Below are positions 1 to 26,926 of a DNA stretch of 31,533 nt, piece by piece. Both the position numbers and the translations under genes were made by a program. Numbering within the stretch: the first letter of the stretch is position 1; every line of letters begins with the position of its first letter. The stretch lies in IMG/VR virus record IMGVR_UViG_3300021356_000097, positions 1 to 31,533 of that record; one strand, written 5' to 3'. Below the pieces are notes generated by a model that saw nothing but the letters and a program-made list of their open reading frames with translations, had not been told where the DNA came from and did not search any database. The stretch is from a virus.

Positions 1-834
1 TTTAGCTGCAGCAATTAGAGTGTCAACAGATCCTAGGAACTCGCACTCAAATTCTTGTGTAAACTGTCGTTCTGATGTGTTCGCGATGGTAGTCTTTTTC
101 CATTCTTCATCGCGTCCTGGTACAAGTGACCAGTGTACCTCTGTCCATGCATATCCATTTCTACCTTTCTGAGCATCAACCCAGAGTTTGTAGAAATGGT
201 TCATCCCGTTCGGCGTTGAGATGATGATGACTTTTGTTGATTTACCAGAAGTAATAGTAGGATAAACAGAGGCAAAGAATTGCTCTGCAATATGGTTTGG
301 AATGAACGCAAACTCATCGAGGAAGATGATGTTAAACGACATGCCTCGGATAGCAGACGCAGATGTAGAAGCTGCCAGTATCTTACTGCCATTTTCAAGT
401 TCCATTGAACCTTTATTATATACCACAATTCCCTGCTGCATCCATAACGGGAGTTGTTCGTATGCTAACTGTAATCTTCCTAGTAGGTCCCTGGCAGTAG
501 AAAGTTTGTTTGCTAGGATACCGATGTTTACGTTGTCATTGAACAACGCATAGTGAAGTAGATATGATACGCAAGTAGTAGACTTACCAGTCTGACGTGG
601 CAACTTAGCGATATTGAATCTGTGTTCGTGGAAACTATTGATCAGTTCCTTCTGGAAGTCCCACATCTTAAACGGAACGACACCTTCGTCAAGAGAAATA
701 ATCTTGACGTAGTTCATTGCAAAGTAGACGGGATCTTCTTTACATCTCAAATACTCTTGAATTTGATCCTGAGTAAATTCAATCGCAGTTCCAACCTTTT
801 TGAGGTTAGGATTACCTAAGTAATGTTCAGACAT
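1..834 (-). CDS. 17: Terminase large subunit gp17 (5' part; runs off the left edge)
   Basis: This is the packaging ATPase that drives DNA into the prohead and cuts the concatemer. I translated 278 codons from the ATG at 834; the frame is open to base 1, so the C-terminal nuclease domain is outside the window. The ATPase core is clear: a Walker A loop PRQTGKST at residues 79-86, a Walker B strand IIFLDE at 169-174 with D173-E174 as the expected catalytic pair, and an ISTPNG coupling motif at 205-210. It lies last in the gp13-gp14-gp15-gp16-gp17 series, as in T4. Unlike T4, where genes 16 and 17 overlap, about 2.4 kb and eight small genes separate it from gp16. A strong terminator stands just upstream and no Shine-Dalgarno is visible, so how it is expressed late is not obvious. 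Confidence 0.97.
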   Translation of the reverse strand, partial: MSEHYLGNPNLKKVGTAIEFTQDQIQEYLRCKEDPVYFAMNYVKIISLDEGVVPFKMWDFQKELINSFHEHRFNIAKLPRQTGKSTTCVSYLLHYALFNDNVNIGILANKLSTARDLLGRLQLAYEQLPLWMQQGIVVYNKGSMELENGSKILAASTSASAIRGMSFNIIFLDEFAFIPNHIAEQFFASVYPTITSGKSTKVIIISTPNGMNHFYKLWVDAQKGRNGYAWTEVHWSLVPGRDEEWKKTTIANTSERQFTQEFECEFLGSVDTLIAAAK

Positions 835-846
835 AATTTTGCTACT

Positions 847-870
847 AAAAAAGGGAGGTTACTCCTCCCT
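847..870 (-). terminator. Rho-independent terminator upstream of gp17
   Basis: On the minus strand a perfect 7-bp stem AGGGAGG/CCTCCCT (870-864 with 858-852), with a 5-base loop, runs into a T6 tract ending at 847. The stop codon of the 57-residue gene lies in the loop. It closes the small unit that begins at the sigma70-like promoter near 1200 and lies only 12 bases before the gp17 start. Confidence 0.85.
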
Positions 871-1032
871 AGATTTATTTAGTTTGTACCAATCTTCGGC
901 GGTTTCATAACTATCAAAGTAGCGCATACGTCCATGGAAGGCGAGCGTAAATTTGTGTAGAAGAGAATCGAAACCAATGATGCCTGTATCCTCTTCGTCA
1001 AGGTATAGACGATCTTCTGGAACCATAGTCAT
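859..1032 (-). CDS. Small hypothetical protein, 57 aa (second gene of the mini-operon)
   Basis: I do not recognise this protein. The ATG at 1032 overlaps the TGA of the preceding 44-residue gene (ATGA), and AAGGAG at 1046-1041 lies 8 bases before it, one of the better ribosome binding sites in the window. The product is acidic at its N-terminus (LDEEDTG, residues 11-17), then has an HKFTLAFHG stretch and ends YETAEDWYKLNKSREE, which looks like a short beta/alpha fold with no membrane segment. The stop lies inside the loop of the terminator at 847-870, so gene and terminator form one unit. Expression from the sigma70-like promoter at 1186-1214 points to an early role, perhaps acting on the host, rather than a virion component. 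Confidence 0.7.
   Translation of the reverse strand: MTMVPEDRLYLDEEDTGIIGFDSLLHKFTLAFHGRMRYFDSYETAEDWYKLNKSREE
872..879 (-). promoter_or_regulatory. Possible degenerate late promoter for gp17
   Basis: The minus strand reads AATAAATC, which matches 6 of 8 bases of the T4-type late element TATAAATA. A start 5-7 bases downstream would fall inside the first arm of the terminator at 852-870, so transcripts begun here could escape that hairpin. The match is weak in an AT-rich sequence; the position is the main argument. Confidence 0.25.
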
Positions 1033-1163
1033 GACTCTTGCTCCTTTTTAATTAGTTCGTTCTCTATAATAGCACGAAGAATCTTTGCACGTCTAGTCTC
1101 ATTGAACGCCTCTAAAACTTTTAGTTCTTGTTTTAGATCATCTAGACTAACGCCTCTTTCCAT
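1029..1163 (-). CDS. Small hypothetical protein, 44 aa (first gene of the mini-operon)
   Basis: I do not recognise this protein. It is charged and predicted largely helical (DDLKQELKVLEAF, then NETRRAKILRAIIENELIKK), so a small helical hairpin or coiled coil is likely. The ATG at 1163 is preferred because GGAG lies 8 bases upstream and because the predicted transcript would start near 1179. An in-frame ATG at 1187, adding eight basic residues, overlaps the -10 hexamer and would not be on that transcript. The gene is coupled to the next by a 4-base ATGA overlap. Helical, charged and early-expressed are typical traits of phage host-takeover peptides, but no target can be named. Confidence 0.65.
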   Translation of the reverse strand: MERGVSLDDLKQELKVLEAFNETRRAKILRAIIENELIKKEQES

Positions 1164-1185
1164 GTAGAATCTCCGTTTCCTACAC

Positions 1186-1214
1186 ATTATATATGATTCA
1201 AATTAAACCGTCAA
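1186..1214 (-). promoter_or_regulatory. sigma70-type promoter for the mini-operon
   Basis: The minus strand shows TTGACG at 1214-1209 (5 of 6 to TTGACA), a 17-base spacer, and a perfect TATAAT at 1191-1186. It lies at the end of the 95-residue gene and a start near 1179 would give a leader of about 15 bases carrying GGAG before the ATG at 1163. This is the host-type (early) promoter architecture and differs from the ATAAATA late elements elsewhere in the window. Confidence 0.75.
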
Positions 1215-1485
1215 GTTCTTCTAACATTTTACGTCTTTCTTCAATTTTTCCATCAATAAAACCTGCTCTATATTCCCAGGTTTGTCCACCATCAATACCT
1301 TTGCTTGGATTGATGCAGCGGTGATCTCCTAGTTTATTGCAAACTAGTCCTGCGAGGTCTAATTCATTTCCTTGGTTTCCAGTTCCACCCCAAACGTGGT
1401 TACCATTAATCCAAGTGGCACCGCACTTCTCGCATTCTCTCCGCTCTAGTTTTAGATCGGAAAGCTGTCGGTCAGGATCGGTCAT
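1198..1485 (-). CDS. Hypothetical protein with Cys pairs (zinc-finger-like), 95 aa
   Basis: Function unknown. The protein has a CEKC pair at residues 18-21, and C49 and C57 around a CNKLGDHRC segment, which together could hold one zinc ion; His30 and His55 are alternatives. The first 20 and last 25 residues are charged helices (DRQLSDLKLERREC and KIEERRKMLEELDGL). The centre is Gly/Asn-rich (WGGTGNQGN). The ATG at 1485 has AAGGAG 10 bases upstream and overlaps the end of the preceding gene by 14 bases. Its 3' end carries the sigma70-like promoter for the next two genes. Zinc binding is my reading of the Cys spacing, not a family match. Confidence 0.7.
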   Translation of the reverse strand: MTDPDRQLSDLKLERRECEKCGATWINGNHVWGGTGNQGNELDLAGLVCNKLGDHRCINPSKGIDGGQTWEYRAGFIDGKIEERRKMLEELDGLI

Positions 1486-1696
1486 CGTGTTTGATCTCCT
1501 TGCTTAGTTTATTGAACTCGGGTAAGTCCTTTATGAGTTGCTGTTCTAATTTGCGTCTCATTAGAAACAGTCTAAACTGTATCAACTGGTAACGCAATGA
1601 TATGTCTATGTATGCGAACAACCTCATAGTGGCATCATAACCCGCATACGCAAATAAAGCAGCCACTAAGAATACAATAATATAGAAACCAAGCAT
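1472..1696 (-). CDS. Small single-pass membrane protein, 74 aa
   Basis: Residues 3-24 (FYIIVFLVAALFAYAGY and flanks) form one clear N-terminal membrane segment. The remainder is a basic, amphipathic stretch (RYQLIQFRLFLMRRKLEQQ) followed by a charged tail, so an N-out/C-in inner-membrane protein is likely. The ATG at 1696 comes 3 bases after the stop of the 267-residue gene. A role in lysis or membrane remodelling can be imagined, but a single membrane pass with no partner gene in view does not establish a holin. I do not recognise the family. Confidence 0.7.
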   Translation of the reverse strand: MLGFYIIVFLVAALFAYAGYDATMRLFAYIDISLRYQLIQFRLFLMRRKLEQQLIKDLPEFNKLSKEIKHDDRS

Positions 1697-1699
1697 AGG

Positions 1700-2503
1700 T
1701 TAGCAGTTCCAAGCGCGAAGAGACTTATTGATTCTAGAATCTGGATCGCGTGCTGTCTTCTTAGATGTTAATTTCTTTTTCATCCCCTTCATTCGCGCAC
1801 AAAAGCTCGCTCTACGAGGGTTCCCAACTTTCTTTGAAGGTCTCTTAAGATCGCTTCCTGGATTTTGACGTTCGTAGGACTTGCGTCCTTTTTCATTAAG
1901 TCCGCCTTTTGGGTTCTTTCCAGATTTCTTTTGCCAGTCTTCATTCTTCATTTTAGCATCGGCACATGTGACCTTCTGGCATTTCTGACATTCAGGACAC
2001 CACTTAGTACCTTCAGGACACTCCTTTGCTTCATTCTTCACAGCATCCGCAATCTTGTGCGCCTTCTTAATTGTACTCTTTTTCAGAGGTGGTTTGTCAC
2101 CAGTAGATTTCATTGCCTGAGCCATACCGATGGCATATGCATCATTATCTTCAGACTTCATCTTTTTCAGATGTTTTCTAATACGATCTGCTTGACCCTT
2201 ATGCATCTTAGATGCACCGTCAAGTTCTTTAGACATCTTCTTAAGATCAAGATCCTCACGGAACTCTCTAAATGATTTCATAGCTCCCTCAGTTGCCAGG
2301 AATGTTGGTGCTGTTGTTTTATCAGACTCGTGATATGAGATTACTCTAGATCCAGGATAGATCTTTTCTGCAATACGTTGTGCTCCAGTTCTTTGGAGTT
2401 TCTGTAACTTTGGAGTAAAAGCAGACAGGGTGAATTCTCTACCACGCCACACGAGGTTGATGGTATAGTATCTACCATACATTGTAGGAATTCTTTCTGC
2501 CAT
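1700..2503 (-). CDS. Cys-rich basic protein with a conserved phage C-terminal domain (DUF6321-like), 267 aa
   Basis: Three parts are visible. Residues 1-75 are a small beta-rich head (YYTINLVWRGREFTLSAF). Residues 80-160 are strongly charged helices containing ASKMHKGQADRIRKHLKKM, a segment also seen in other phage structural proteins. Residues 162-180 hold four to five cysteines (C162, C169, C172, C175, C180) spaced like a zinc ribbon. The C-terminal 70 residues (GLNEKGRKSYERQNPGSD through KSLRAWNC) resemble a domain I recall from tailed-phage proteins as DUF6321; the family name is from memory. GAGG sits about 8 bases before the ATG. The high Lys/Arg content suggests contact with DNA or acidic virion surfaces. 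The function is not known. Confidence 0.8.
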   Translation of the reverse strand: MAERIPTMYGRYYTINLVWRGREFTLSAFTPKLQKLQRTGAQRIAEKIYPGSRVISYHESDKTTAPTFLATEGAMKSFREFREDLDLKKMSKELDGASKMHKGQADRIRKHLKKMKSEDNDAYAIGMAQAMKSTGDKPPLKKSTIKKAHKIADAVKNEAKECPEGTKWCPECQKCQKVTCADAKMKNEDWQKKSGKNPKGGLNEKGRKSYERQNPGSDLKRPSKKVGNPRRASFCARMKGMKKKLTSKKTARDPDSRINKSLRAWNC

Positions 2504-2504
2504 A

Positions 2505-2789
2505 TCAACCCTCAGTAGCTACTGCGGAACATCTTTGCAAACTAGATCCGCCACCTACATAGTGGTCTGGATCTTTTTTGATAACAATAGACTCTCTTGC
2601 TCGCAGTGCATATTGAGCTACTCTAGTGTATGTTCCACCAGATTCACTAAAGACACCAAAGTTAGTTCCACCGCTACTATAACTTACCAATCGAACATAG
2701 ACTGCTCGATCTAAAGTGCTGTACTGGGAGGAACCTGATCCTGATGGGGTGTGTAGGGTGTTACCACCAATAAGTTTAAGTGCTCTCAT
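2505..2789 (-). CDS. Small structural-type protein, 94 aa (paralogue of the next gene upstream)
   Basis: This beta-rich protein is a diverged copy of the 92-residue product encoded at 2794-3072. Both have T(L/M)DRAxYVR near residue 30 and ESI(V/L)IKKDPDxxVG about 45 residues later. The stop is separated by one base from the ATG of the 267-residue gene. No membrane segment or signal peptide is visible. The position behind gp16 in the late virion cluster, with Ser/Gly-rich loops, suggests a small decoration or fibre-associated protein; this is inference. It contains one Cys (in LQRCSAV). Confidence 0.75.
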   Translation of the reverse strand: MRALKLIGGNTLHTPSGSGSSQYSTLDRAVYVRLVSYSSGGTNFGVFSESGGTYTRVAQYALRARESIVIKKDPDHYVGGGSSLQRCSAVATEG

Positions 2790-2793
2790 TATC

Positions 2794-3072
2794 TTATGGG
2801 TTAGGTGAAACTGCTGATGCGTAAACGTTTCCAGTAGAGGATCCTACAAACTCATCTGGATCTTTTTTGATGAGGATACTTTCTCCTGGAGCAATGATAG
2901 TACGACCAACATTGGTGTTATTATCATTAGCAGTAGTTCTAACAAAAATATCGTAGGCTGTTCCCGTAGAGATATTAGTAATCCTAACGTAGGTTGCCCT
3001 ATCCATAGTAGTATCGTTACTACTAGTCAACTGGGAATAATTTGCGCTTAGAACTTCAATTGGTTTGGACAT
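2794..3072 (-). CDS. Small structural-type protein, 92 aa (paralogue of the next gene downstream)
   Basis: Diverged tandem partner of the 94-residue gene at 2505-2789, sharing TMDRATYVR (residues 22-30) and ESILIKKDPDEFVG (residues 64-77). The rest is Thr/Asn/Ser-rich and predicted beta, fitting a small virion surface protein. GAGGAG, at the end of the preceding 37-codon gene, lies just before the ATG at 3072, so the two are probably translationally coupled. I do not know a functional family. Confidence 0.75.
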   Translation of the reverse strand: MSKPIEVLSANYSQLTSSNDTTMDRATYVRITNISTGTAYDIFVRTTANDNNTNVGRTIIAPGESILIKKDPDEFVGSSTGNVYASAVSPNP

Positions 3073-3073
3073 T

Positions 3074-3187
3074 TTACTCCTCTGTGTAGCCTTCGTCGGT
3101 CAAAGTATCGAGAGCGTCACCCTCTCCCGTATCTGAATATCCCTCATCATTAAGGACTTCCAATCCTGTATCAGACTCTTCTTCCAT
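3074..3187 (-). CDS. Acidic small peptide, 37 aa, with an internal duplication
   Basis: This short frame lies between gp16 and the 92-residue gene. Its product is very acidic (about 14 Asp/Glu and a single Lys-free composition) and holds two copies of a short motif: LNDEGYSDTG and LTDEGYTEE. It begins about 23 bases after a GATAAATA late element and ends one base before the ATG of the 92-residue gene. No Shine-Dalgarno precedes it. The promoter spacing, exact fit between neighbours and internal repeat argue for a real gene, but it could also be leader sequence for the downstream pair. Confidence 0.55.
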   Translation of the reverse strand: MEEESDTGLEVLNDEGYSDTGEGDALDTLTDEGYTEE

Positions 3188-3208
3188 GATGATAGTTTAG
3201 TTACAACT

Positions 3209-3625
3209 TTATTTATCTGCTTTCTTCTTAGCGTCTTTCAACATCTTCTGAAGATCTGCTGTACTACCAACAAACAAAGCATTGGTGACGTTAGTTGGTC
3301 CCTTTGTTTTTTCTTCTTTGACTGACTTAGTATCTTTTTGCAGACCCATAATTTTGTCTGCTACATCTCCGACGTGTTTGATGAGTTGTCCAGCAACTTC
3401 ATATGCTCTAGGGTGATCAGAAGACATAGCCAAATCAAGAGCGCCGTTGATAGCTTCTTGTCCTTTATCCACCAACTGGTAAAGATTTGCTCTTGCATAT
3501 TCGTAGTCTTTTTCTACATCATCCTGCTCTAATCTAGCAGGTGGTTTCTTTTTCTTTGATTCTTCCGCTGGGACAATATCCGCTACGGTTTCAAACGCTT
3601 CGTCTAATCCTTCAAACTTATCCAT
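3209..3625 (-). CDS. 16: Terminase small subunit gp16
   Basis: The small terminase recognises phage DNA and regulates the gp17 motor. The 138-residue product is a little shorter than T4 gp16 (about 164). It has an acidic head (DKFEGLDEAFETVADIVPAEE), a basic patch KKKKPPAR at 24-31, a central helical region (DYEYARANLYQLVDKGQEA and HPRAYEVAGQLIKHVGDVADKIM) expected to form the oligomeric coiled-coil core, and a Lys-rich tail. Its ATG overlaps the TAA of gp15 by one base. Identification rests on these features and on position directly after gp15. The stop codon is embedded in a GATAAATA late promoter. Confidence 0.88.
   Translation of the reverse strand: MDKFEGLDEAFETVADIVPAEESKKKKPPARLEQDDVEKDYEYARANLYQLVDKGQEAINGALDLAMSSDHPRAYEVAGQLIKHVGDVADKIMGLQKDTKSVKEEKTKGPTNVTNALFVGSTADLQKMLKDAKKKADK
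3210..3217 (-). promoter_or_regulatory. T4-type late promoter (GATAAATA)
   Basis: GATAAATA on the minus strand overlaps the TAA stop of gp16 and lies 23 bases before the ATG at 3187. It is well placed to drive the 37-, 92-, 94- and 267-residue genes. It matches the late -10 element of T4 at 7 of 8 positions; the first base is variable in T4-like relatives. Confidence 0.7.
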
Positions 3626-4629
3626 TATTCAAAAAATACGGAGGTCATTTCATTGAATCCAAAGTCATCTCCAGAGTCTAAGAGAGCATCATCTTCAGCA
3701 TTGATTAAGTCAACTGCAGCACCAGCAGCATGAGCGGATGCAGTTGTTCCGTTCTGTGCTCTGACAACCTTAATCTTATTACCGCCTGGTTTAGACTTGA
3801 CTTTCATCACCTCATTACCAATCTCGATGAATCCACCGATAACGATATCTACAATATCGTCTACATCAAATGTAAGCGTGCTCTTTGTAATTGGACTGGA
3901 CAGTGAAGTAGTACCATCTTTGTTTTCGTCTGTAAGTGCTTTTGGTGTAACCTCGTAAGCAACTTGACGCTCTGCCTGCAAATTGGTATTGGTACGATAA
4001 TCGACCTTTGCCTTTTTGATAGGTCCTTGAGTTCCAATAGGTCCAAAGATATAAGTTTTTGCAGTGAACTGCAGTGTGAAGATAGTGAGTTTTCTACTAT
4101 CAAATGTACCTTCATAATCATCTGAGTAGTTTACACTGTTCAGAGTGATGGGGACATCTCTATAGTCATTCAACTCATCAACCAGTTTGATGGTTACGTT
4201 GTATGATGGTTGGAAGAATGGAAAGATCTGCTCAGCAATTTCAATTGCTTCATCATTAGTCTTTGAAATGATGTTGAGTTCAAAGTCTACGTTGTATGGG
4301 ACAGGTACAAACTGTTTAGTAACTGTTCCAGCGTCTTTTGGTTTTAATGACTTTGTAACTGCTCCTAGTTTTCTGGTTGCATCATAAGACACACCAGTCA
4401 TCTCGAAAGACAGTCTAGGGAGAGTAATCGCAACCTTTTTATTCAGGTCTGGTTGCTCAGTAATACGTGCTAAAAATTTCTGACGAGGACCATATGCCAG
4501 GGGCACCTTCATTCTGCTGTAGGTGCTGCCATCTGCATTTTCTTTGCGGACCTCAATGTTATTAAAAAGAGTACCAAAAGCAATCAGGGTCTTTCTAATA
4601 ATTTTGTTATATGTATATGTCCCTAACAT
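3625..4629 (-). CDS. 15: Tail sheath stabiliser / tail terminator gp15
   Basis: In T4, gp15 caps the tail tube and sheath and binds the neck. The 334-residue product begins MLGTYTYNKIIRKTLIAFGTLFNNI and has the beta-rich core typical of cyanophage gp15 (PRLSFEMTGVSYD at 71-83; PSYNVTIKLVDELNDYRDVP at 141-160; LQFTAKTYIFGP at 186-197). It is about 60 residues longer than T4 gp15. The extra length is largely a module at about 235-310 containing VVRAQNGTTASAHAAGA, a motif also met in fibre and decoration proteins. The end, DDFGFNEMTSVFFE, appears to be native gp15 sequence. The ATG at 4629 follows the gp14 stop by one base. Confidence 0.93.
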   Translation of the reverse strand: MLGTYTYNKIIRKTLIAFGTLFNNIEVRKENADGSTYSRMKVPLAYGPRQKFLARITEQPDLNKKVAITLPRLSFEMTGVSYDATRKLGAVTKSLKPKDAGTVTKQFVPVPYNVDFELNIISKTNDEAIEIAEQIFPFFQPSYNVTIKLVDELNDYRDVPITLNSVNYSDDYEGTFDSRKLTIFTLQFTAKTYIFGPIGTQGPIKKAKVDYRTNTNLQAERQVAYEVTPKALTDENKDGTTSLSSPITKSTLTFDVDDIVDIVIGGFIEIGNEVMKVKSKPGGNKIKVVRAQNGTTASAHAAGAAVDLINAEDDALLDSGDDFGFNEMTSVFFE

Positions 4630-12712: not shown

Positions 12713-13369
12713 TTAATAAGAAAAATTGCGAATTAAACGATCTTGAACCTCTTGGAGATTCATAATTAAGTGTTCGTCCTTATATTTATCTAGGATATAA
12801 GAACATGATTCTGTAATGCTACTAATGCATTCCCTTACAGGTTCATTAATAACTTTACTTTCCATCCACCATACGGCACCTAACCTTTCACCTTCGGTGA
12901 CTGGCATTACCTCATGGCGTACACCAGAAGGATAGCATATAAACTGTCCAAATTGAAGCTTAACTGGAATGAAGTCAACAGCATTGACATAGATCCTCAA
13001 CTCTCCACCCTCATATTCATCTGGGTCAGAGAGAAATAGTGTATGACTATAGTGAGTGAGAATCTGGTGTTCACCTCCCATCAAAGAAGAATCATTATGT
13101 CTGAAATAATGATCTCCAACTCCATACTTATTAAAAGTAACAGGAGTTAATCTTCTAGGAATGACTTTGTTTACATACGATCCAATCTTATAGATTCCTT
13201 GATGAATCTGTGCGCTAAGTGCTTGATCGTATGCTTGTTTATTTACCTTGACAGGATTGTTTGGATTACTTCTAGCACCATCAGACCACTCTAAATTTTG
13301 AATTAGAGATTTGATAGTTTTAAGTTCTTCAATGTCAGGGTACTCATAGATATCGAATAATGAATGCAT
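12713..13369 (-). CDS. Fe(II)/2-oxoglutarate-dependent oxygenase, PKHD/PiuC-like
   Basis: The 218-residue product matches the prolyl-hydroxylase-type fold of the PKHD (PiuC/YbiX) family, whose members hydroxylate with Fe(II), 2-oxoglutarate and O2. Visible active-site residues are the HxD pair H91-x-D93 in YFRHNDS, the distal His H152 in PSGVRHEV, and R162 in GERLGAVWW as the likely 2-oxoglutarate anchor. The EYEGGELRIY strand at 118-127 is also characteristic. The length (about 220) is normal. It lies between a LamG-like fibre gene and a coiled-coil gene, so hydroxylation of a virion fibre is an attractive idea; the substrate cannot be read from sequence. Cyanophages commonly carry such genes, usually without known function. 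Confidence 0.9.
   Translation of the reverse strand: MHSLFDIYEYPDIEELKTIKSLIQNLEWSDGARSNPNNPVKVNKQAYDQALSAQIHQGIYKIGSYVNKVIPRRLTPVTFNKYGVGDHYFRHNDSSLMGGEHQILTHYSHTLFLSDPDEYEGGELRIYVNAVDFIPVKLQFGQFICYPSGVRHEVMPVTEGERLGAVWWMESKVINEPVRECISSITESCSYILDKYKDEHLIMNLQEVQDRLIRNFSY
12783..12790 (-). promoter_or_regulatory. Possible late promoter (GATAAATA) inside the oxygenase gene
   Basis: GATAAATA lies in the oxygenase coding sequence 73 bases before the ATG at 12710. The other late elements with good placement lie 23-54 bases before a start. It could boost the two small downstream genes or simply be coding sequence (LDKYK). Confidence 0.3.
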
Positions 13370-17353: not shown

Positions 17354-20300
17354 TTAAATAATACTCCAGCTACCACCGTTAGCAATAGTGATCGTGTTTC
17401 CATTATTTATAGTGATAGGACCAGCGGTCATGCAGTTATCACTAGAAGAAACTGTGATGTTCTCTCCAATAGTTTGACGATTACGCTTGAATACGCCGTA
17501 TGTATCAATCCACTGCTTGTCACCATCAGCACGAAGAACAACGCTCCTCTGACCACTACTCAATCCGACTGAACTAGTGTTGATGTTCAGACCGTTTTGA
17601 CCGCGAACCTCAACTCTATAATTGGTCTGATTTTGGTCGCCACCAGAGTAGAATGTCCAAGTACCACCATTACCATCAACAGAACCCATGCTGGTATCGT
17701 TATCAGATCTCCAGTAGAAGTTATCACCAGTTCTGAAGAATGTGTGAGAGTTATTACCAAAGTAGAATCTTGGTTGACCACCAGCATCGTTCAACCATAC
17801 GTTTACGCTAGAACCGAAGTATGGGAGACCTAATGCTTGATAACCATCAAGGAGATCAGCGTTCAAGTTTGTACATACTGTAGTAGAAGTTACCGCGAGT
17901 GGTGAAGTACCAGTTGCAACTGTAGAAATAAGTCTGTTGTCAGTTTCAATTGCACCACCAACGGTTAGAGTTGAACCAGCACCAGTGCTAACACCACTGC
18001 CCTTGTTCATGAATACTCTGTTTGTTGCAGAGTAGATACACAACGATGCGCTGTTCCTAGCACCTTGGAATGTTGTAGTAAGAGCTCCACTAGCATTAGC
18101 AAATCCTTTGATAACGAACCAAGATTGGTTATTATCGTCTGCACCCAACTGCCAACCCGAATCATCGCTAGTGTCACTAAAGGTCATGAATGGAGATGAT
18201 CCGTCTCCACCAAACGTAATTCTGTGGTATCCTGAACGACCATCTCTAAAGTCCGCAAACAACTGGGAACTATCGCCTTGTCTAACAATCTCTAAAGGAG
18301 ATCCTGGATTGCTGTCTCCAATACCGATGCGACCATTACGGAAGAAAACGTTGTTGTAAGACAGATATGATCCGTTCCAACCAAAGGAATTGCTATCATT
18401 ACCAAAGCGGATGAATCCTTGATTTCCGTTACCTTTGCCTTTGAGAGCTGCAGTATTGGTTGTTACCTTACCAAAGGTAATACCATTACCATCACCAATG
18501 CTCAGTGCGCCTGTACCGTTGTTAGAGAAGATACCTTGGTCAGCATACAAGTCAGAGATATTGATGTCACCTGATCCAGTTCTTCTTACAAGTGTATTAT
18601 TTACATTGCTAGAGTTCTGGGTGTAACCATCAACATAGTGAGCGTCTAACTGTGATGATGCTCCATCGTTTCCTGCGTGCCAGACTGTATTGCCATTAAA
18701 GGTAAAGTCAGCAGCATTGATTCTTAAAGTTCCCTGTCCGTTGGTAGCATTACCACCAGAGATGAAGAACTGAACATCGTAGTTAGCTGCCAGACCAGAA
18801 GATCTGAAATCGATACTTGGTGTTGTAGTTACATTACCTTTACCAATCTGCAGTTTAGCACCTACAGGATTGTCAGTAAGACCGAAGATTTGACTAGAAC
18901 CAGAAGCAATTTCATTAGAAGAAGTTACAGTCCACTTAGTTCCTGGGTTTGGACCAAAGATAGCGATGTTTGCATTAGTGTTAACACCGACAAATGTGAT
19001 AGATCCAGTAACTAATGAATAGATGTCTCCAGTTGGTCCTGTTTGTTCGGAAACTCCATTTGCATCAACTACGATAGAACCAATGTTATTGGTTGCGTTT
19101 GAATCTGAGTAGATAGTATATGTTCCACCATTATTGATGTTACCATTAGTTCCAGAATTTACATGATACTTTGGAATATACAAAGTGTATTTGTTTCCAG
19201 TGTCATGTACATACAGATTCTCAAGGAAGATCTTTTCTCTACCTAATACTTCTGGTAAGAATGGATCACCAATAACACCAACTCCTCTTGTATCACCAAA
19301 GTTATATCCAGATTGATACCAGAGACCTTCATAATTATCAAGTTTGTCCGCATTCAATCCACCAGTTCTCGCTGGTTGACTTGGATCATTGAGATTTGGA
19401 CCATCATTGGCAGAGGACCACATCTTAGCCCAGTTGCCATATACGTTACCAGATCCAGAGTTGCCTCTAATATAAAGGTTATTGTTACTTGTAAATCCAA
19501 GTTGAGTCGCTGCATTTCCAGTAGCTTCTCTTCTGTAAGTTAGTACACCGTGAGTTGATGCACCATCATTGAGACCTGTTGCAGCATTGTTTCTAAGTGC
19601 GGCACTAATACCAGCACCAGACGTGCTTGGTGTTGGGTTAGAACTTAACGCTGTAACATCATTAAAGACCCTGTTAGCGGTGTCAGCAGTACCAGAGATG
19701 GAAATGTTATAGGTGGTATTTGCCAGACGTGCTGGGTCAAGAGTACCACTTAAGAGGTTTGTAGCATCCTCAAAGTAAGATGCTGGGTTACCATGTAAGA
19801 AGTCAGCGTTGAGTTTAGATCCTGGACCCTGATCAATTGAGACTTCACCGTTAGCGGTAACAATAAATCCACCTTCAGATTGATTACCAATTGCTTGGTT
19901 GGCAACATCCTTACGGAACTTGAATACACCATAGTTACCATAGATGGTGGAGCTTGGTGTTAAGTCGTTTCCTTTTCTGATGTCAATAGAAGCGTTACCA
20001 TAAACTCTGTTTATAGTTCCTTTGTTTGCAGTAAGAACTGCATTAGTTCCAGATCCCAGTTCTGCTGGAATAGTTACAGTAAAGTCAGCAGCGTATCCAG
20101 TACCAGAGTCAGTGATAGATGCTGATGTAATAACTCCACCACTAACAACATAGTTAGCGCGAGCAACATTATCATCAGAACCAGTAATGCTACCACCACC
20201 AGTGTTAGATCCACCTTCTACTGGGAGGTTTTGGTAATTGCCATCAGTAAATCCTGTACCACCATTGGAGATGGTGATAGAGTCAATGTAAGAACTATCA

Positions 20301-23300
20301 GTGATAGAACCACTGATAAGCATTGCGTCAGCTGTTTCTGGTTTGAGTGATTGAATTACAAACTCATACGAAGAGTCACCTCTTAGGAATGTATTAGAGT
20401 TTGCAGCACCTCTAGCAGCAAGACGTTCTGGATCGATTGTACCAGCAACAATATTAGAAGCGTCAATATTGGTAGATGTTAACTGCGTCCAGTTAGCAGC
20501 GTTAGATGCAGAAGTATTGATTACTCTACTGAGGTCAATAATTCTCTTTCTATTAATGTTGCCACTTGTCGTAGTGCTGTTAACTGACTGAATTGTATAC
20601 TCATTAACGTTAATTACGTTAATAGTATAGAATCCATCTGGAGCAGTTCCAGATGTAAAGTCTAAGTAGACAAGATCGGCGTTAGCGAGACCATGTGAGG
20701 TTTCTGTAATACTAACGACATTGCTATTATTTTGAGAATATGTTCCAGTTCCTTCGTTGACTAAACCTTGATCTAAGATAAAGTCACCAGCGTCAAACTT
20801 AATATTGTTAGCAATGTCGATATCAACACGTCCTTCAATCTCCGCTGCGATGACTGCATTATTAGCAGTTGGAGATGCCTGTGGAGTTACTGTTGGTTGA
20901 CTGTAATATCCTTGACCAAAGTTAGTGATTGTTACTGCGGTAACTACACCGTTAGAAACGTTAGCGGTAGCAGCTGCCTGAACACCATTTACAGTATCAT
21001 CTGGAGCACTGATAGTTAAACTGAAGTCTCCAGTATATCCACCGCCACCATTACTGATATTATACTTAAATACTCTACCATCATTATAACCAGTTACAGT
21101 TCCTCTAGCAGTTGTAGAACTACCGACGATAATATCACCATTGTTAAATGTGAATGCACTGTTAGGTTGGAATGCTAAGAATTGAGATTCTAAATCATTC
21201 TCCAAGATATAAGAAACTGCTGTTCCTTGAGTTGTAAATACTTGAGTTCCAGTTCCTTGTGTTGTTAAGTCAATAGCAGTGGGAATCTGAGCATTAGCTT
21301 CGGATACCGCTAACTGGATAGTGTTGGCATCTACAACGTAAACATAATAAGTATTACCTGTTGCAAGACCACCTATAGCTGCAGTTCCTTGTGTATAGAT
21401 CAGTGCATCTCCAGTTGATAAACCATGACCAGTAATAGTGATTTGTTCATTACTGGTATTGATAGATCCTGGTGCAACGTTAAACGTCTCAGTTGAGGTT
21501 TCAATTGCAATATCACCTGCCTCAGCATCTTCAATTGCAAGACGCGCAGCAGTAGAAGCAACAGAGGTAATATTGAAAGGACGTAGAGCAGGAATCTGGT
21601 CAATATTGATCTTACCAGATGCGGTCAACTGAACCAGCGCAGAAGGAACAGCGTTGGTAGAGTATGGTTGGTTCAGGTATGGACCAAGGTTGTTAGAGAT
21701 ATAATCCTTAACTGCTGCCTGAGTTGGGAGGATGGAGTCACTTGCAAATGCACCACCCAGGTTATCATCAGCAGAGAAACCTGTAATAGTGATGTTACCA
21801 CCAACAATTTTAATGGAGGACAGTTCGGAAATACTAACAGTACCAACGAAACTAATAGCACCAGTTCTGTTGAAGATAGTAACGAAGTTACCAACCTTGA
21901 AATCACCAAACTCGTTAGTACCAGAAGTATAGACCTGACCGAACGCTTGTTCCGCTGCTTCGTATGCAGTTCCTAAACCAACACCACCGTTTTGTGGAAG
22001 AGCAGCGTAAGTGTTACCAGAACCAGAATATTCCCAAGTGTGAGAAGAGGAGTTAACTACAGATGGTCTATGTAATTTAATAGTTCTGTTTACCAGACCA
22101 GAACTTAGATTTCCATTTGCATAACTGTATACAGTGCTAGTAGATGTCTCTGTCAGATCAAGAGACTGGTTAATTGTGATGTCTGCAACAATCTGAGTAC
22201 CTGGAGAACCACTAATTAACTCAGTTTCAAGAACAATAAATTCAATTGCAGTATTGGTATTTGTAAGACCGTCAAACTTGACGATATAATCTTCAATTGG
22301 AATGTTGGTTAATGTTGTTCCACCAATTCTTAAGGTCTGTCTTCCAGTTGCAACTCCATTACCATCAACTTCGTTAGTAACACTCTGTACAGTGCCGATG
22401 TCAAAGGCATATGGTTCCGCTCTGAAACCAGTTGCACGGAGAGCGAATGTACCAAAGTTAGATGCCGAGTTGGTAACAGAAGCGTAACCACCAGACTGAC
22501 ATACAATACCATCTTGACAGAAGATAGCAAACACAGAAACTAACTGCGTATATCCATCGTTGGTAATATTGTATGCTGTACCACCGAAAGAGATAATCGT
22601 AAATGCCGATGCAACCATCGACTTACCTTGTGGATCAAACTTGGCAGTTATATTACCTTGTCCATCTACCTTTAGACCTGGACGTGGTACGTTTGGTGTA
22701 GCAACCTTAGCACCATCAATTTCACAACCAGAACCACCCAAGAAGGAGATTAGAGAGGAGTTCTGAATGTATGGGGATGCTTCAATAACAGGCAGATCAA
22801 GGTTGTCCGAAAGCAGTGGGAAACTATATCCACCAGATCCCAACTCAGTGATCAGTGGATCTGGATTAGTTACTGTTCCACTGTAAGCAGTAGAAGTGCT
22901 CAGTGTTGTGTCAAGAATCTGCCAATTAGTAGTAAGAGCAGCAACAACGTTAGCGCATTCTGGTTGAACTGAATCAACAGTTACAGATCCATTTGCTACT
23001 GGAGTGATTTGACTGAAAGATCCAGTTGTAAGGTCATTTCTAATTGCTTTGACTGCAAGTTCTTTTGCCTTTGCATATACAGTTCTAGAGAAGTCAACCT
23101 CATTTGCGATAAACTGGATTGCTCCACTGTTGATATAGAGATTTGCTGCCTCTACAATTTTGGAGTTACCATTGTATCTAAGATCAAATTGGAATGCTTT
23201 GAGGATCTTAATGATATCATCAACACATTGCTGATCTCCCTCAGCATAAGTTCTTGTTACACCGCTTAAGTTACCAGGATTACCTGTGCTACCAATAGCA

Positions 23301-26300
23301 GTAGTTAAGACTCCAAACAGAGTTGTGATAGTGGAAGCTACATCTTGACATGCTGGACTTTGAATGTCCTGAGTAATACTGGTATCTTTTACCTGAGTAT
23401 ACCCACCAAGGTTGTAAGTGGTGAATGCAGATGCAAAGGTCTCGTTACGCATTGCTGCAATAGCGAGATCTCTAGAATAATTGAATGCAATTACAGACTC
23501 ATTTTCTTCGCCAGCAACATGAGCACCATCAACATAATACTTAGCAGCATCATATACTTGATCGTTTCCACCGTAGGTGAGGTTATATGTAAGAGATTTT
23601 AAGAAGTCAACAACGTCATCCTTACAGTTTTGAGTTCCTGTTGGGACTGTGAATGACTGCTCAGCAATCATTCTTTCAACTGCCATTTCGGCAATCATAT
23701 CAGCATTAGCAAGAATCAAAGATGATGCGTCTGCATATCTATCACCGTAAGGAAGACTTCCTGGAGTGATATGTGGAAGAGGTGTGAGATACGTTACTGT
23801 TCCTGTCTCACCATCATTATTGGAGTTTGGAAGAGTAATTGTAAATGTTCTGTGATCTGTTTGATCCGCAATTTGGTAACTAGCGGCACCGAGGGATCCA
23901 CTAAAAGTAAAGTTATATGTCTGTAATGCATATCCAGCATGTCCAAGTGGAACAGTTACAGTGCAAGTTGTTCCAGAAACAGAGTAAGTACCAGCTCTCG
24001 TATTTCCTAAGATAGTTGAATAATTTACACTATCAATAACAGGTTGAGTTCCTCTAGTTACCGAACTAGTATGGTGCGATTTTACAAAAGCATATGCTTC
24101 TTCTGCAATATGATTTTGGTTTGCCCTGATAGCTTCGGCACCATCTCTAAATCTATCTGATACTGGTTCAGATTTAGTAAACACATATGGAGAGTTTCTC
24201 AGTGATGCAAGAACATAGTTACTTGCTGAGATAACAGTCTGATCTCCAGTTGGATCCAGAGCAGCATTGAATACTGAATAGTTACCTCTTACTGCAAATT
24301 GCAGAGAGTATCCATCAGCTCTTTCGATTCTATGCGTTACATACTTTCTACCATTCAGGTCTGCAATGTTGTCAGCAATCGTTAGAGAACCTGTTGTTGA
24401 TTTACTATCAGGTGCTTTGAGCGTAAATCTTACAGTATTAGTTCCAACATCATAAACACCATAACCAACACCTAGAGCTGTATTTGCTGGAAGAGATGGA
24501 TGTGAAGATCCAGTACCAAAAGAATCAATATGATATGTCTTAGATACTGCTGTTCCAGAAGTAAAGTTGAACTTTAAACCAGCTTCTCCAAGAGAAGTTA
24601 AATTACCCCAAAGAGTACCTACTAAACTAGCATCAGTGCTGGTGATTGTTACTTCAATAGCATTTCCAGTTTGACTGTATGCGTAACTTGCAGCTCCACC
24701 AAAATCAATAGTGCTGGAAGTAAATCCATAAAGATTGACCTCTTGTCCAACTTCAAATGTATGGAAGTTAGTGCCTGTAGAGGTTACTAAAACTCCATTG
24801 TAAGCTTGCTGTGTAGTTAACGAACAATCGATTGTAGAGACACTGACAAGATTATTGGATAAATCAAATCTATGATCTCCTTTTCCTGCAGATGTGATAT
24901 CAATCAGGACAGGATCATCAGCTCCAGATGCATTTTTATTTGTAGCGTCAGCAGCGGAAGCTGCAAGAGCAATCCAATTATCGTTATACTTGTATGCATA
25001 ATAACGAGTGTCATTGGTAAGTCCACCAATGTCACCAAGACTGCTGGAGCGATATTCTAATGGATCTCCAGATACAAGTCCGTGTCTTTCAATAAAAATT
25101 TGATTGTTCTCTGGCATGATATTGCCAGAAGTTAGATAATGATATCCAGTAGAAGTTCCTGTGATATCTTTTCTTCCCTCTACCTCAGTAATCGTGGTAG
25201 AGTTTTCCCAAGTATCATAGAGTTCAATAGTGTTACTATCAACAGATCTTACATAATAAACTGTGCCGTCGATGAGACCAGGGATAACTGGGTTTCCATC
25301 TCTGTTATAGGAGACAGCAGAACCAGTAGCAAGTCTATGTCCTGGGATAGTAATTCTATCAGTCAGGACATCTGGAATATTTGTAGCATCTGGAATAAAC
25401 TGAAGAGTTTCTCTTTCAGAATCTACAGTGTGTTGGAAAATCTGGTTAGAGATGGTTTCCAGTTCTGGTCTCAATGACTCGGTATCAGCAACCTCAAAAC
25501 GTAAAGATACACTTGGGTTATTGATATCAGTAATAATATTAGCAAAAGAAGCAGAATCGTAGAAGATACTTTCTGCCTGATTGAATGTTGCTGTTGGTCC
25601 AGATGTGACCAGGATAGTTACAAATCCAGTTGCAGCTTGGGTAGCTCCAGTTCCAGTAAAGGTTACTGACTGAACTCTACCTTGAGTACCAGAAGATCCA
25701 CCCTGTACATAAAAACCCACTCCAGGTGTAGCTGTAGTTCCTGTGTGGTTTGTGAAGGTGACCTTGAAAATGTTTTCACCACGGAATTGATCACCTGGAA
25801 CAGCAGGAATTTGTCTTACTTCAGGTTCGTAGTAAAGTCTCTGCTTATCGTCAAATACGAATGCGAAATTCCAAGTGTGAATTACTTCACTTTGAGGATC
25901 ACTAGCGTTTTGGAGAGCATCTCTGAATACAACTCCATTAACATAAGTTTCGTTAGACGCCTTGACCATATGGCGGTCAGCGTTAATTGGTCTAACAACT
26001 ACTCTACGAAGGTTGTCACCAATCAGAGAACAGTTTCTTGGAAGAGAGATTGGGTTATCTTCTAAGTATTCACCACCAGATACGATGATCGATACGTACT
26101 CATCACTAGGATCTGGAGTTGCTTTTTGTAATCCGTATGCAATTTGAGCAGCTTTTTTAATAGTAGCAACTGGTCTTGCTGCAGAGCGACCATCATTGGT
26201 ATCACTACCAATAGTAGAAGATACGTATACACGACCACCCGTGTCATTGGTGGCGACTTTATATACGAAGTCTGTAGTTGCAATACGTCTCGACTGATCA

Positions 26301-26926
26301 CTCAGAGGAGGAGTATCTGCTGTTGGGAAAAATGTAGTACCGAAAGTGGGACTATTTACATCGGTATCTTCAAAGTTAACTAAGTTTGGAGCACGAAGAT
26401 TCAGTGCTGGGTTGACGATAGTGTCAATATCCAGGTTTAAAATTTGTGCAGTATCAGAAATGATAGAACGAGTCGTTCTAATCTGACCTTCAACGTCAAG
26501 TTCAAACTCAGGGTTGGCAGTATTAACACCAACACGAACGTTTTGAGAAGCGTTTTTGTTTACAAAGATAGCTTCTTTTTGGTTAGCTCCAACACCAACC
26601 GCCACAGAAACATTGTTATCACCTTGTAGAGTTACTGATCTTCTACGGCGATACGATACTGTGTTACCAGCAACAATAGTGCCGCTGGCGGAATCGGTAA
26701 TTGTAAAATTATCATCATCAACTACGGTGATGGTGTAGATGCCATCCGTAGCTCCACCCGAGGTGAAATCCAGGTAAAGAGAGTCGTTACTGTCGAGTCC
26801 ATGCGACGGACTGATAACATTGACAGTAGTTAATTGTCTGAAGTAAGTGGCGTTAATCCATGCGCCAGTGTTTACTACACCAGAACCTTCGATTCTTTGC
26901 TGTTCTGAATTAAAATTGAGACTCAT
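17354..26926 (-). CDS. Giant tail fibre protein, 3190 aa
   Basis: One uninterrupted frame encodes about 330 kDa. Residues 38-95 are a beta module (SHGLDSNDSLYLDFTSG) that recurs near the middle. Residues 231-345 form a pectin-lyase-like beta-helix start (VSSTIGSDTNDGRSAARPVATIKKAA). Several HGLxTGDxxxY...GLxxGxxYYV repeats follow. About residues 1095-1345 hold two copies of a helical module (CKDDVVDFLKSL...AAKYYVD and CVDDIIKILKAF...AANLYIN). A cysteine-containing beta segment comes next (GCEIDG; FCQDGIVCQSGG). The C-terminal third has features of T4-type distal fibres (WHAGNDG, ADKLDNYEG) and ends ITINNGNTITIANGGSWSII, a tip typical of cyanophage fibres. It is probably the main long fibre. 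It begins 12 bases after the 176-residue gene. Confidence 0.9.
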   Translation of the reverse strand: MSLNFNSEQQRIEGSGVVNTGAWINATYFRQLTTVNVISPSHGLDSNDSLYLDFTSGGATDGIYTITVVDDDNFTITDSASGTIVAGNTVSYRRRRSVTLQGDNNVSVAVGVGANQKEAIFVNKNASQNVRVGVNTANPEFELDVEGQIRTTRSIISDTAQILNLDIDTIVNPALNLRAPNLVNFEDTDVNSPTFGTTFFPTADTPPLSDQSRRIATTDFVYKVATNDTGGRVYVSSTIGSDTNDGRSAARPVATIKKAAQIAYGLQKATPDPSDEYVSIIVSGGEYLEDNPISLPRNCSLIGDNLRRVVVRPINADRHMVKASNETYVNGVVFRDALQNASDPQSEVIHTWNFAFVFDDKQRLYYEPEVRQIPAVPGDQFRGENIFKVTFTNHTGTTATPGVGFYVQGGSSGTQGRVQSVTFTGTGATQAATGFVTILVTSGPTATFNQAESIFYDSASFANIITDINNPSVSLRFEVADTESLRPELETISNQIFQHTVDSERETLQFIPDATNIPDVLTDRITIPGHRLATGSAVSYNRDGNPVIPGLIDGTVYYVRSVDSNTIELYDTWENSTTITEVEGRKDITGTSTGYHYLTSGNIMPENNQIFIERHGLVSGDPLEYRSSSLGDIGGLTNDTRYYAYKYNDNWIALAASAADATNKNASGADDPVLIDITSAGKGDHRFDLSNNLVSVSTIDCSLTTQQAYNGVLVTSTGTNFHTFEVGQEVNLYGFTSSTIDFGGAASYAYSQTGNAIEVTITSTDASLVGTLWGNLTSLGEAGLKFNFTSGTAVSKTYHIDSFGTGSSHPSLPANTALGVGYGVYDVGTNTVRFTLKAPDSKSTTGSLTIADNIADLNGRKYVTHRIERADGYSLQFAVRGNYSVFNAALDPTGDQTVISASNYVLASLRNSPYVFTKSEPVSDRFRDGAEAIRANQNHIAEEAYAFVKSHHTSSVTRGTQPVIDSVNYSTILGNTRAGTYSVSGTTCTVTVPLGHAGYALQTYNFTFSGSLGAASYQIADQTDHRTFTITLPNSNNDGETGTVTYLTPLPHITPGSLPYGDRYADASSLILANADMIAEMAVERMIAEQSFTVPTGTQNCKDDVVDFLKSLTYNLTYGGNDQVYDAAKYYVDGAHVAGEENESVIAFNYSRDLAIAAMRNETFASAFTTYNLGGYTQVKDTSITQDIQSPACQDVASTITTLFGVLTTAIGSTGNPGNLSGVTRTYAEGDQQCVDDIIKILKAFQFDLRYNGNSKIVEAANLYINSGAIQFIANEVDFSRTVYAKAKELAVKAIRNDLTTGSFSQITPVANGSVTVDSVQPECANVVAALTTNWQILDTTLSTSTAYSGTVTNPDPLITELGSGGYSFPLLSDNLDLPVIEASPYIQNSSLISFLGGSGCEIDGAKVATPNVPRPGLKVDGQGNITAKFDPQGKSMVASAFTIISFGGTAYNITNDGYTQLVSVFAIFCQDGIVCQSGGYASVTNSASNFGTFALRATGFRAEPYAFDIGTVQSVTNEVDGNGVATGRQTLRIGGTTLTNIPIEDYIVKFDGLTNTNTAIEFIVLETELISGSPGTQIVADITINQSLDLTETSTSTVYSYANGNLSSGLVNRTIKLHRPSVVNSSSHTWEYSGSGNTYAALPQNGGVGLGTAYEAAEQAFGQVYTSGTNEFGDFKVGNFVTIFNRTGAISFVGTVSISELSSIKIVGGNITITGFSADDNLGGAFASDSILPTQAAVKDYISNNLGPYLNQPYSTNAVPSALVQLTASGKINIDQIPALRPFNITSVASTAARLAIEDAEAGDIAIETSTETFNVAPGSINTSNEQITITGHGLSTGDALIYTQGTAAIGGLATGNTYYVYVVDANTIQLAVSEANAQIPTAIDLTTQGTGTQVFTTQGTAVSYILENDLESQFLAFQPNSAFTFNNGDIIVGSSTTARGTVTGYNDGRVFKYNISNGGGGYTGDFSLTISAPDDTVNGVQAAATANVSNGVVTAVTITNFGQGYYSQPTVTPQASPTANNAVIAAEIEGRVDIDIANNIKFDAGDFILDQGLVNEGTGTYSQNNSNVVSITETSHGLANADLVYLDFTSGTAPDGFYTINVINVNEYTIQSVNSTTTSGNINRKRIIDLSRVINTSASNAANWTQLTSTNIDASNIVAGTIDPERLAARGAANSNTFLRGDSSYEFVIQSLKPETADAMLISGSITDSSYIDSITISNGGTGFTDGNYQNLPVEGGSNTGGGSITGSDDNVARANYVVSGGVITSASITDSGTGYAADFTVTIPAELGSGTNAVLTANKGTINRVYGNASIDIRKGNDLTPSSTIYGNYGVFKFRKDVANQAIGNQSEGGFIVTANGEVSIDQGPGSKLNADFLHGNPASYFEDATNLLSGTLDPARLANTTYNISISGTADTANRVFNDVTALSSNPTPSTSGAGISAALRNNAATGLNDGASTHGVLTYRREATGNAATQLGFTSNNNLYIRGNSGSGNVYGNWAKMWSSANDGPNLNDPSQPARTGGLNADKLDNYEGLWYQSGYNFGDTRGVGVIGDPFLPEVLGREKIFLENLYVHDTGNKYTLYIPKYHVNSGTNGNINNGGTYTIYSDSNATNNIGSIVVDANGVSEQTGPTGDIYSLVTGSITFVGVNTNANIAIFGPNPGTKWTVTSSNEIASGSSQIFGLTDNPVGAKLQIGKGNVTTTPSIDFRSSGLAANYDVQFFISGGNATNGQGTLRINAADFTFNGNTVWHAGNDGASSQLDAHYVDGYTQNSSNVNNTLVRRTGSGDINISDLYADQGIFSNNGTGALSIGDGNGITFGKVTTNTAALKGKGNGNQGFIRFGNDSNSFGWNGSYLSYNNVFFRNGRIGIGDSNPGSPLEIVRQGDSSQLFADFRDGRSGYHRITFGGDGSSPFMTFSDTSDDSGWQLGADDNNQSWFVIKGFANASGALTTTFQGARNSASLCIYSATNRVFMNKGSGVSTGAGSTLTVGGAIETDNRLISTVATGTSPLAVTSTTVCTNLNADLLDGYQALGLPYFGSSVNVWLNDAGGQPRFYFGNNSHTFFRTGDNFYWRSDNDTSMGSVDGNGGTWTFYSGGDQNQTNYRVEVRGQNGLNINTSSVGLSSGQRSVVLRADGDKQWIDTYGVFKRNRQTIGENITVSSSDNCMTAGPITINNGNTITIANGGSWSII
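17404..17411 (-). promoter_or_regulatory. T4-type late promoter (TATAAATA) for the fibrinogen-like adhesin
   Basis: A perfect TATAAATA, preceded by C, lies inside the last codons of the 3190-residue fibre gene, 54 bases before the ATG at 17350. It would let the adhesin operon be expressed apart from the very long fibre transcript. Because it also encodes part of TINNGN, chance is possible. Confidence 0.6.
22905..23640 (-). repeat. Duplicated helical module inside the giant fibre gene
   Basis: Two units of roughly 110-130 codons, starting near 23640 and 23240, share a pattern. It begins with a Cys-containing helix (C-x-DD-[VI][VI]-x(2)-L), then Y-[GN]-GN, an AA-x-[KL]-YY/I helix, a long A-rich helix ending A[MI]RN[ED], and a final Cys-containing helix (PACQDVAS / PECANVVAA). 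Divergence is high, so this is an old protein-level duplication. Confidence 0.7.

What the first reader, a model, noticed from the sequence alone, without database searches (positions are those of the whole stretch)
847..1214. Self-contained sigma70-driven mini-operon wedged between the two terminase genes
A near-consensus promoter (TTGACG, 17 bases, TATAAT), two tiny genes with good Shine-Dalgarno sites and ATGA coupling, and a strong terminator form a closed unit inside an otherwise late, ATAAATA-driven region. Genes placed this way (moron-like) often serve early host takeover or defence. Both products (44 and 57 residues) are unrecognised.
Basis: partly seen in the sequence, partly recalled or inferred. 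Interest (0 to 1): 0.66.

Follow-up and report, generated by a model that had tools for sequence, protein, structure and literature searches.

The report
Insulated two-gene cassette before phage terminase
In a virus of marine cyanobacteria, two very small conserved genes of unknown function sit just ahead of the DNA-packaging motor gene and, in this virus lineage only, have gained their own start and stop signals for transcription; this is a modest variation on a known gene-swapping region.

Summary
On the minus strand, a TTGACG-17-TATAAT promoter, two short coupled genes (A, 44 aa; B, 57 aa) and a hairpin/T-run terminator lie directly upstream of gp17 in a T4-like cyanophage. "Wedged between the terminase genes" is loose: at least five other genes lie between gp16 and this unit.

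The interpretation needs correcting. A and B are not unrecognised moron cargo. They belong to PHROG families 22265 and 32067 (the P-HM2 pair T4-GC521/522) and sit next to P-HM2-type gp17 in most sampled relatives, usually overlapping gp17 and the upstream gene, with no own promoter or terminator. Only the window's sublineage has the closed unit. Its terminator is present in every haplotype seen. Its promoter (always a 17-nt spacer) is strong in five haplotypes, even where spacers are unrelated, and weak in the others, most of which carry two extra small genes. The two-gene version occurs in two gp17 backgrounds, suggesting exchange.

Best reading: an insulated, host-sigma70-type cassette in the known gp16-gp17 hyperplastic region, inherited with gp17. 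Early timing and function are untested. B is predicted as a βββα, possibly AP2-like, mini-protein; A as a helical hairpin.

The parts
1186..1214 (-). sigma70-type promoter: -35 TTGACG (1214-1209), 17-nt spacer, -10 TATAAT (1191-1186); predicted start of RNA about 1179
   Evidence: 11/12; only 11/12 site of the window; same boxes and spacing in L007, L014, L018 and L123 with little spacer identity to WIN
1029..1163 (-). gene A, 44 aa, predicted helical hairpin; phrog_22265 / P-HM2 T4-GC521 homolog
   Evidence: model mean pLDDT 91.5; six invariant columns in 21 homologs
859..1032 (-). gene B, 57 aa, predicted bbb-alpha fold; phrog_32067 / P-HM2 T4-GC522 homolog; start overlaps A's stop (ATGA)
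   Evidence: model mean pLDDT 70, about 80 in residues 21-50; dN much lower than dS
847..870 (-). intrinsic terminator AGGGAGG-AGTAA-CCTCCCT + T run; B's stop codon lies in the loop
   Evidence: present in every sublineage haplotype, including the altered GGGAGGCTTGACCTCC of L123
876..883 (-). ACTAAATA in the 3' end of B: possible variant late promoter for gp17 (NATAAATA with one change); inferred only
   Evidence: conserved although CTA is the rarest Leu codon (28 of 354); TCTAAATA lies at the corresponding place before gp17 in ACG-2014i and S-CAM1
1..834 (-). gp17 terminase large subunit (cut by the window end), P-HM2 type
1198..1485 (-). gene D, 95 aa, phrog_484, related to T4-GC392; its last codons carry the -35 box
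1472..1696 (-). gene E, 74 aa, phrog_1181, related to T4-GC836
3209..3625 (-). gp16 terminase small subunit
   Evidence: phrog_445 E 4.5e-53, PF11053 above cut-off

Best explanation
It is a small resident gene pair of the cyanophage gp16-gp17 hyperplastic region that has become its own transcription unit. SHOWN by sequence: A and B are conserved, coupled genes co-inherited with P-HM2-type gp17; in this sublineage they are preceded by the E-D gene block, followed by a conserved terminator and, in the two-gene form, preceded by a conserved sigma70-type promoter. INFERRED: host RNA polymerase with its ordinary sigma factor transcribes A-B without waiting for the phage late factor gp55, so the pair can be made early or throughout infection; the terminator keeps that transcription out of gp17, which is then expressed late, possibly from an ACTAAATA late-type box in the end of B that lies just upstream of the hairpin. 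MORE SPECULATIVE: B is a small nucleic-acid-binding protein (AP2/integrase-arm-like bbb-alpha fold) and A a helical-hairpin partner or adaptor.
For: Same order A-B-gp17 in most relatives with P-HM2-type gp17. Promoter boxes at exactly 17-nt spacing in WIN, L007, L014, L018 and L123; spacer identity WIN-L014 only 4/17 while the boxes match 10/12; among 65 unique upstream regions only L123, L014 and L007 were scored >=10/12 (WIN and L018 seen), null P about 0.007 per region. Terminator in all sublineage haplotypes and none of the P-HM2-like overlapping arrangements. Host sigma70 thought to drive cyanomyovirus early genes, NATAAATA late genes (PMC2984593). B fold: AP2 chain 6sy0 Z 4.0, rmsd 2.1 over 43; viral HNH endonucleases among the top matches; weak Pfam Arm-DNA-bind_4, E 0.017.
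Against: No transcript data. Four-gene relatives (L009-L013, L015-L019) keep the terminator but score at most 9/12 for a promoter, so the promoter is not universal; in them and in L123 the -10 sequence also reads as YIL codons of a membrane-peptide ORF. The ACTAAATA box is only a variant of the late motif. The B model is of moderate confidence, no fold match exceeds Z 5, and PH-like, dsRBD and other folds score similarly.
Confidence: 0.6

Rival explanations
1. The pair is an ordinary part of the late gp16-gp17 operon; the promoter match is incidental or weak, and the hairpin acts as an attenuator or RNA 3' stabiliser that lowers gp17 output, with late transcripts reading through it.
For: In most relatives A-B overlap both neighbours and have no own signals. 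A 11/12 promoter-like site is expected about once per 63 kb by chance. The -35 box lies in codons of gene D. B's stop codon lies in the hairpin loop, so translation of B could weaken termination.
Against: Promoter boxes and spacing recur in diverged haplotypes with little spacer identity to WIN.
Confidence: 0.25
2. A moron-like early host-takeover or counter-defence cassette, independent of gp17, parked in a variable slot.
For: Known hyperplastic region between gp16 and gp17 (PMC3037559, PMC4928673); extra small genes come and go between A and B; a B homolog followed by a C homolog lies elsewhere in S-BM3.
Against: Strong linkage of A-B to P-HM2-type gp17; no match to PADLOC models; own promoter and terminator absent in most carriers.
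Confidence: 0.12
3. B is what is left of the DNA-binding part of a homing endonuclease that once targeted gp17, kept as a small regulator or doing nothing.
For: AP2-like fold matches include phage HNH endonucleases; endonuclease genes are known beside gp17 in cyanophages.
Against: B is under purifying selection and intact in all relatives seen; fold match is weak.
Confidence: 0.08

Closest known systems
PHM2_113-PHM2_114 (T4-GC521/GC522) of Prochlorococcus phages P-HM1, P-HM2 and MED4-213
   Same: Homologous pair (44-52% identity), same order, same place directly before gp17
   Different: There A overlaps the upstream gene and B overlaps gp17; no terminator and no promoter in between; no E-D block upstream
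gp16-gp17 hyperplastic region of marine cyanomyoviruses (Millard et al. 2009, cited in PMC3037559 and PMC4928673)
   Same: Same interval, small genes that vary between phages, sometimes metabolic genes such as zwf, gnd and petE
   Different: The closed promoter-A-B-terminator unit described here was not found described in the papers read; the original paper is not held
GC836-GC392-gp17 arrangement of S-PM2, Syn1, S-CAM1 and ACG-2014i
   Same: The window has homologs of both genes (E, D) in the same order
   Different: There gp17 follows GC392 after about 20-27 bp, with an ATAAATA or CTAAATA box; in the window A-B and the terminator lie in between
AP2 / integrase-arm small DNA-binding domains
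   Same: Predicted bbb-alpha order and an F-D-[ST]-x-E-x-A stretch; 6sy0 rmsd 2.1 over 43
   Different: No significant sequence match to the Pfam families; Z only 4

Membership tests
PHROG 22265 / T4-GC521 (gene A) | sequence match to the family | tested here: met
   E 9.4e-10; P-HM2 GC521 itself hits the same PHROG at 6.3e-38
PHROG 32067 / T4-GC522 (gene B) | sequence match to the family | tested here: met
   E 2.3e-10; P-HM2 GC522 hits it at 3.7e-44
Moron (self-contained acquired phage cassette) | own promoter and terminator | tested here: met
   (by sequence only)
Moron (self-contained acquired phage cassette) | absent from close relatives at the same site, i.e. inserted as a unit with its signals | tested here: not met
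   the pair is present at the same site in most relatives with this gp17 type, without the signals
Moron (self-contained acquired phage cassette) | expression independent of neighbouring late genes | not testable with these tools
   no transcript data at hand
Cyanophage early (host sigma70) transcription unit | sigma70-type -35/-10 at suitable spacing | tested here: met
Cyanophage early (host sigma70) transcription unit | RNA present early in infection | not testable with these tools
   the Syn9 transcriptome paper is not held; the P-HM2 light/dark paper's main text names neither gene
AP2 / Arm DNA-binding domain (gene B) | significant profile match | tested here: inconclusive
   Arm-DNA-bind_4 E 0.017 in 2 of 29 members, below curated level
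AP2 / Arm DNA-binding domain (gene B) | three-stranded sheet plus helix fold | tested here: inconclusive
   predicted bbb-alpha, mean pLDDT 70; AP2 chain Z 4.0, tied with unrelated folds
Known anti-phage defence proteins | match to a PADLOC model | tested here: not met
   no match at E up to 1 for A, B, C or the membrane peptide

The most novel reading that the evidence does not exclude
An early/late switch built into the gp17 upstream region: the host polymerase makes A-B from a sigma70 promoter and stops at the hairpin, while the late polymerase starts from a CTAAATA box hidden in B's last codons, at the edge of the hairpin, so that the same terminator blocks early but not late transcription of the terminase gene; A-B act on early DNA or on the terminase through the AP2-like protein B.
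Probability: 0.15. Interest if true: 0.5.

Novelty: new variant of a known kind. Interest (0 to 1): 0.33.

Why it matters
It gives two orphan protein families a genomic logic (linkage to one gp17 type) and shows natural variants in which the same gene pair is either fused into the late operon or insulated with its own promoter and terminator. That is a ready comparison for testing how cyanophages move genes between temporal classes. The practical stake is modest, since the functions of A and B stay unknown.

Tried and rejected
Adjacency to gp16: rejected, five ORFs intervene. A and B as equivalents of GC836 and GC392: rejected; those are the upstream ORFs 1472-1696 and 1198-1485, and the DNA matches fall there. 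Late box AATAAATC at the end of B: rejected, it varies to AATAAAGC, AATAAGGC or AATAATGC in relatives; the overlapping ACTAAATA does not. Structured RNA: no Rfam match at E up to 1 in 1-4000. Solved-structure sequence searches with both profiles: nothing significant. A against solved folds: best Z 5.5 (McsA), typical for a helical hairpin and not informative. PDB Foldseek for B: nothing with E below 1. Known defence models: none. Syn9 transcriptome paper not held.

Full report
What is there. The window is a 31.5-kb fragment of a T4-like marine cyanophage from a viral-contig collection, nearly all genes on the minus strand. Directly before gp17 (834-1) lie a TTGACG-17-TATAAT promoter (1214-1186), gene A (1163-1029), gene B (1032-859, ATGA overlap) and a hairpin with a T run (870-847). 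The wording 'between the two terminase genes' needs care: gp16 (phrog_445, PF11053) is at 3625-3209, and five ORFs lie between it and the unit.

Is it more than chance? A scan of the whole window for the same consensus gives one 11/12 site; random sequence of the same composition gives about 0.6 per strand, so the match alone proves nothing. Three things do count. It lies exactly in the short gap before A. The boxes and the 17-nt spacing recur in other haplotypes: TTGACG-17-TATACT in L007/L008, TTGACA-17-TATACT in L014 and L123, TTGACG-17-TATACT in L018. And the spacer between the boxes is largely unrelated (WIN to L014, 4 of 17 identical, boxes 10 of 12; WIN to L123, 9 of 17), while in L014 the -35 overlaps the stop codon of D and in L123 both boxes lie inside a small membrane-peptide ORF. 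As a control, 65 unique 110-nt regions upstream of A homologs were scanned: those reaching 10/12 were L123, L014 and L007 (the window and L018 entered with a longer reading frame and are documented); Markov shuffles reach 10/12 in 0.7% of regions. The haplotypes are related, so these are not fully independent events. The genes themselves are real: low dN relative to dS for B, and invariant residues across homologs of 40-50% identity.

What the genes are. A matches phrog_22265 and B phrog_32067, both of unknown function. Their best annotated relatives are PHM2_113 and PHM2_114 (T4-GC521 and GC522) of P-HM2 and the matching genes of P-HM1 and MED4-213, in the same order and directly before gp17. 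In a survey of gp17 loci, most with gp17 at least 87% identical to the window's carry A-B immediately upstream, while loci with more distant gp17 do not; some close ones instead have a larger, structural-looking gene before gp17. Separate profile scans for A and B returned the pair with gp17 in 128 fetched loci, not all distinct contigs, and with a third gene between in 18. So the pair travels with one type of gp17.

How the closed unit arose. In P-HM2-like phages the order is F (DUF6321)-A-B-gp17 with overlaps, no hairpin and no promoter at 10/12. In the window's sublineage E and D (relatives of GC836 and GC392, which directly precede gp17 in S-PM2, Syn1, S-CAM1 and others) lie between F and A, and a hairpin separates B from gp17. 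This hairpin is in every haplotype of the sublineage, even where the sequence differs (GGGAGGCTTGACCTCC in L123). Within the sublineage there are forms with and without extra genes. L009-L013 and L015-L019 read D-membrane peptide-A-C-B, with overlapping or nearly overlapping frames, and no better than 9/12 for a promoter; L123 has the membrane peptide but not C; WIN, L007/L008, L014 and L018 have neither. The TATATACT of the membrane peptide's YIL codons resembles the -10 box of the two-gene forms, so the -10 may be a remnant of that gene (inference). The two-gene form occurs on both the WIN-like (gp17 99%) and the L014-like (95%) background. A groups by gene content (WIN-L014 70%, WIN-L010 49%), whereas B and gp17 group by background (B: WIN-L010 89%, WIN-L014 70%). 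This suggests recombination between A and B.

Surroundings already known. The gp16-gp17 interval is a published hot spot of gene gain and loss in marine cyanomyoviruses (PMC3037559; PMC4928673, both citing Millard et al. 2009). C is phrog_495 / T4-GC43, found in 449 cyanophage records, mostly elsewhere in the genome; the membrane peptide is phrog_814. In S-BM3 a B homolog followed by a C homolog lies away from gp17.

Mechanism. In cyanomyoviruses early genes are thought to be read by unmodified host sigma70 polymerase, and late genes from NATAAATA (PMC2984593). The window has six NATAAATA sites on the gene strand, none between A-B and gp17. The simplest reading is that A-B are made by host polymerase independently of the late programme, and that the terminator keeps this from entering gp17. 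gp17 then needs readthrough or its own start. An ACTAAATA box in B's last codons is unchanged in the sublineage (TTTAAATA in L123) although CTA is the rarest Leu codon (28 of 354), and TCTAAATA sits at the corresponding place before gp17 in ACG-2014i and S-CAM1; S-BM3, whose B is not before gp17, has CTAAACA. A start there would fall at or in the hairpin's first arm. This is a hypothesis; no transcript data were available.

Protein function. A is predicted with high confidence (mean pLDDT 91.5) as a two-helix hairpin; fold matches are uninformative. B is predicted as three strands and a helix (mean pLDDT 70, about 80 in the core). Its best close superposition is an AP2 DNA-binding domain (6sy0, Z 4.0, rmsd 2.1 over 43), and phage HNH endonucleases are among the viral matches, but several unrelated folds score equally and Pfam support is below threshold. 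DNA binding is a lead, not a result.

Verdict. The moron and host-takeover reading is weakened, because the pair is the standing neighbour of this gp17 type and it is the regulation, not the gene pair, that is peculiar to the sublineage. Novelty is a variant of a known kind; interest is modest.

Noticed in passing
L009-L013, L015-L019 upstream of B: Four-gene version of the slot: a single-helix membrane peptide (phrog_814) and a C gene (phrog_495, T4-GC43) are interposed around A.
   Followed up: partly
window 876-883 (minus strand): ACTAAATA in B's last codons is conserved at synonymous sites and may be the late promoter of gp17.
   Followed up: partly
L030, L032, L034, L035, L039, L049, L060, L061, L068 just before gp17: A different gene, ending in ...DFTYRxSx and probably structural, directly precedes P-HM2-type gp17 in these loci; in L060/L061 a divergent B relative lies upstream of it.
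   Followed up: no
L022 4935-5377 (S-BM3): A B homolog followed by a C homolog on the opposite strand to its neighbours, far from gp17.
   Followed up: partly
window 12713-13369: 2OG-Fe(II) oxygenase gene (phrog_61, E 4.3e-30) within the structural region.
   Followed up: no
window 17354-26926: 3190-aa ORF matching a tail fiber family (phrog_5342).
   Followed up: no
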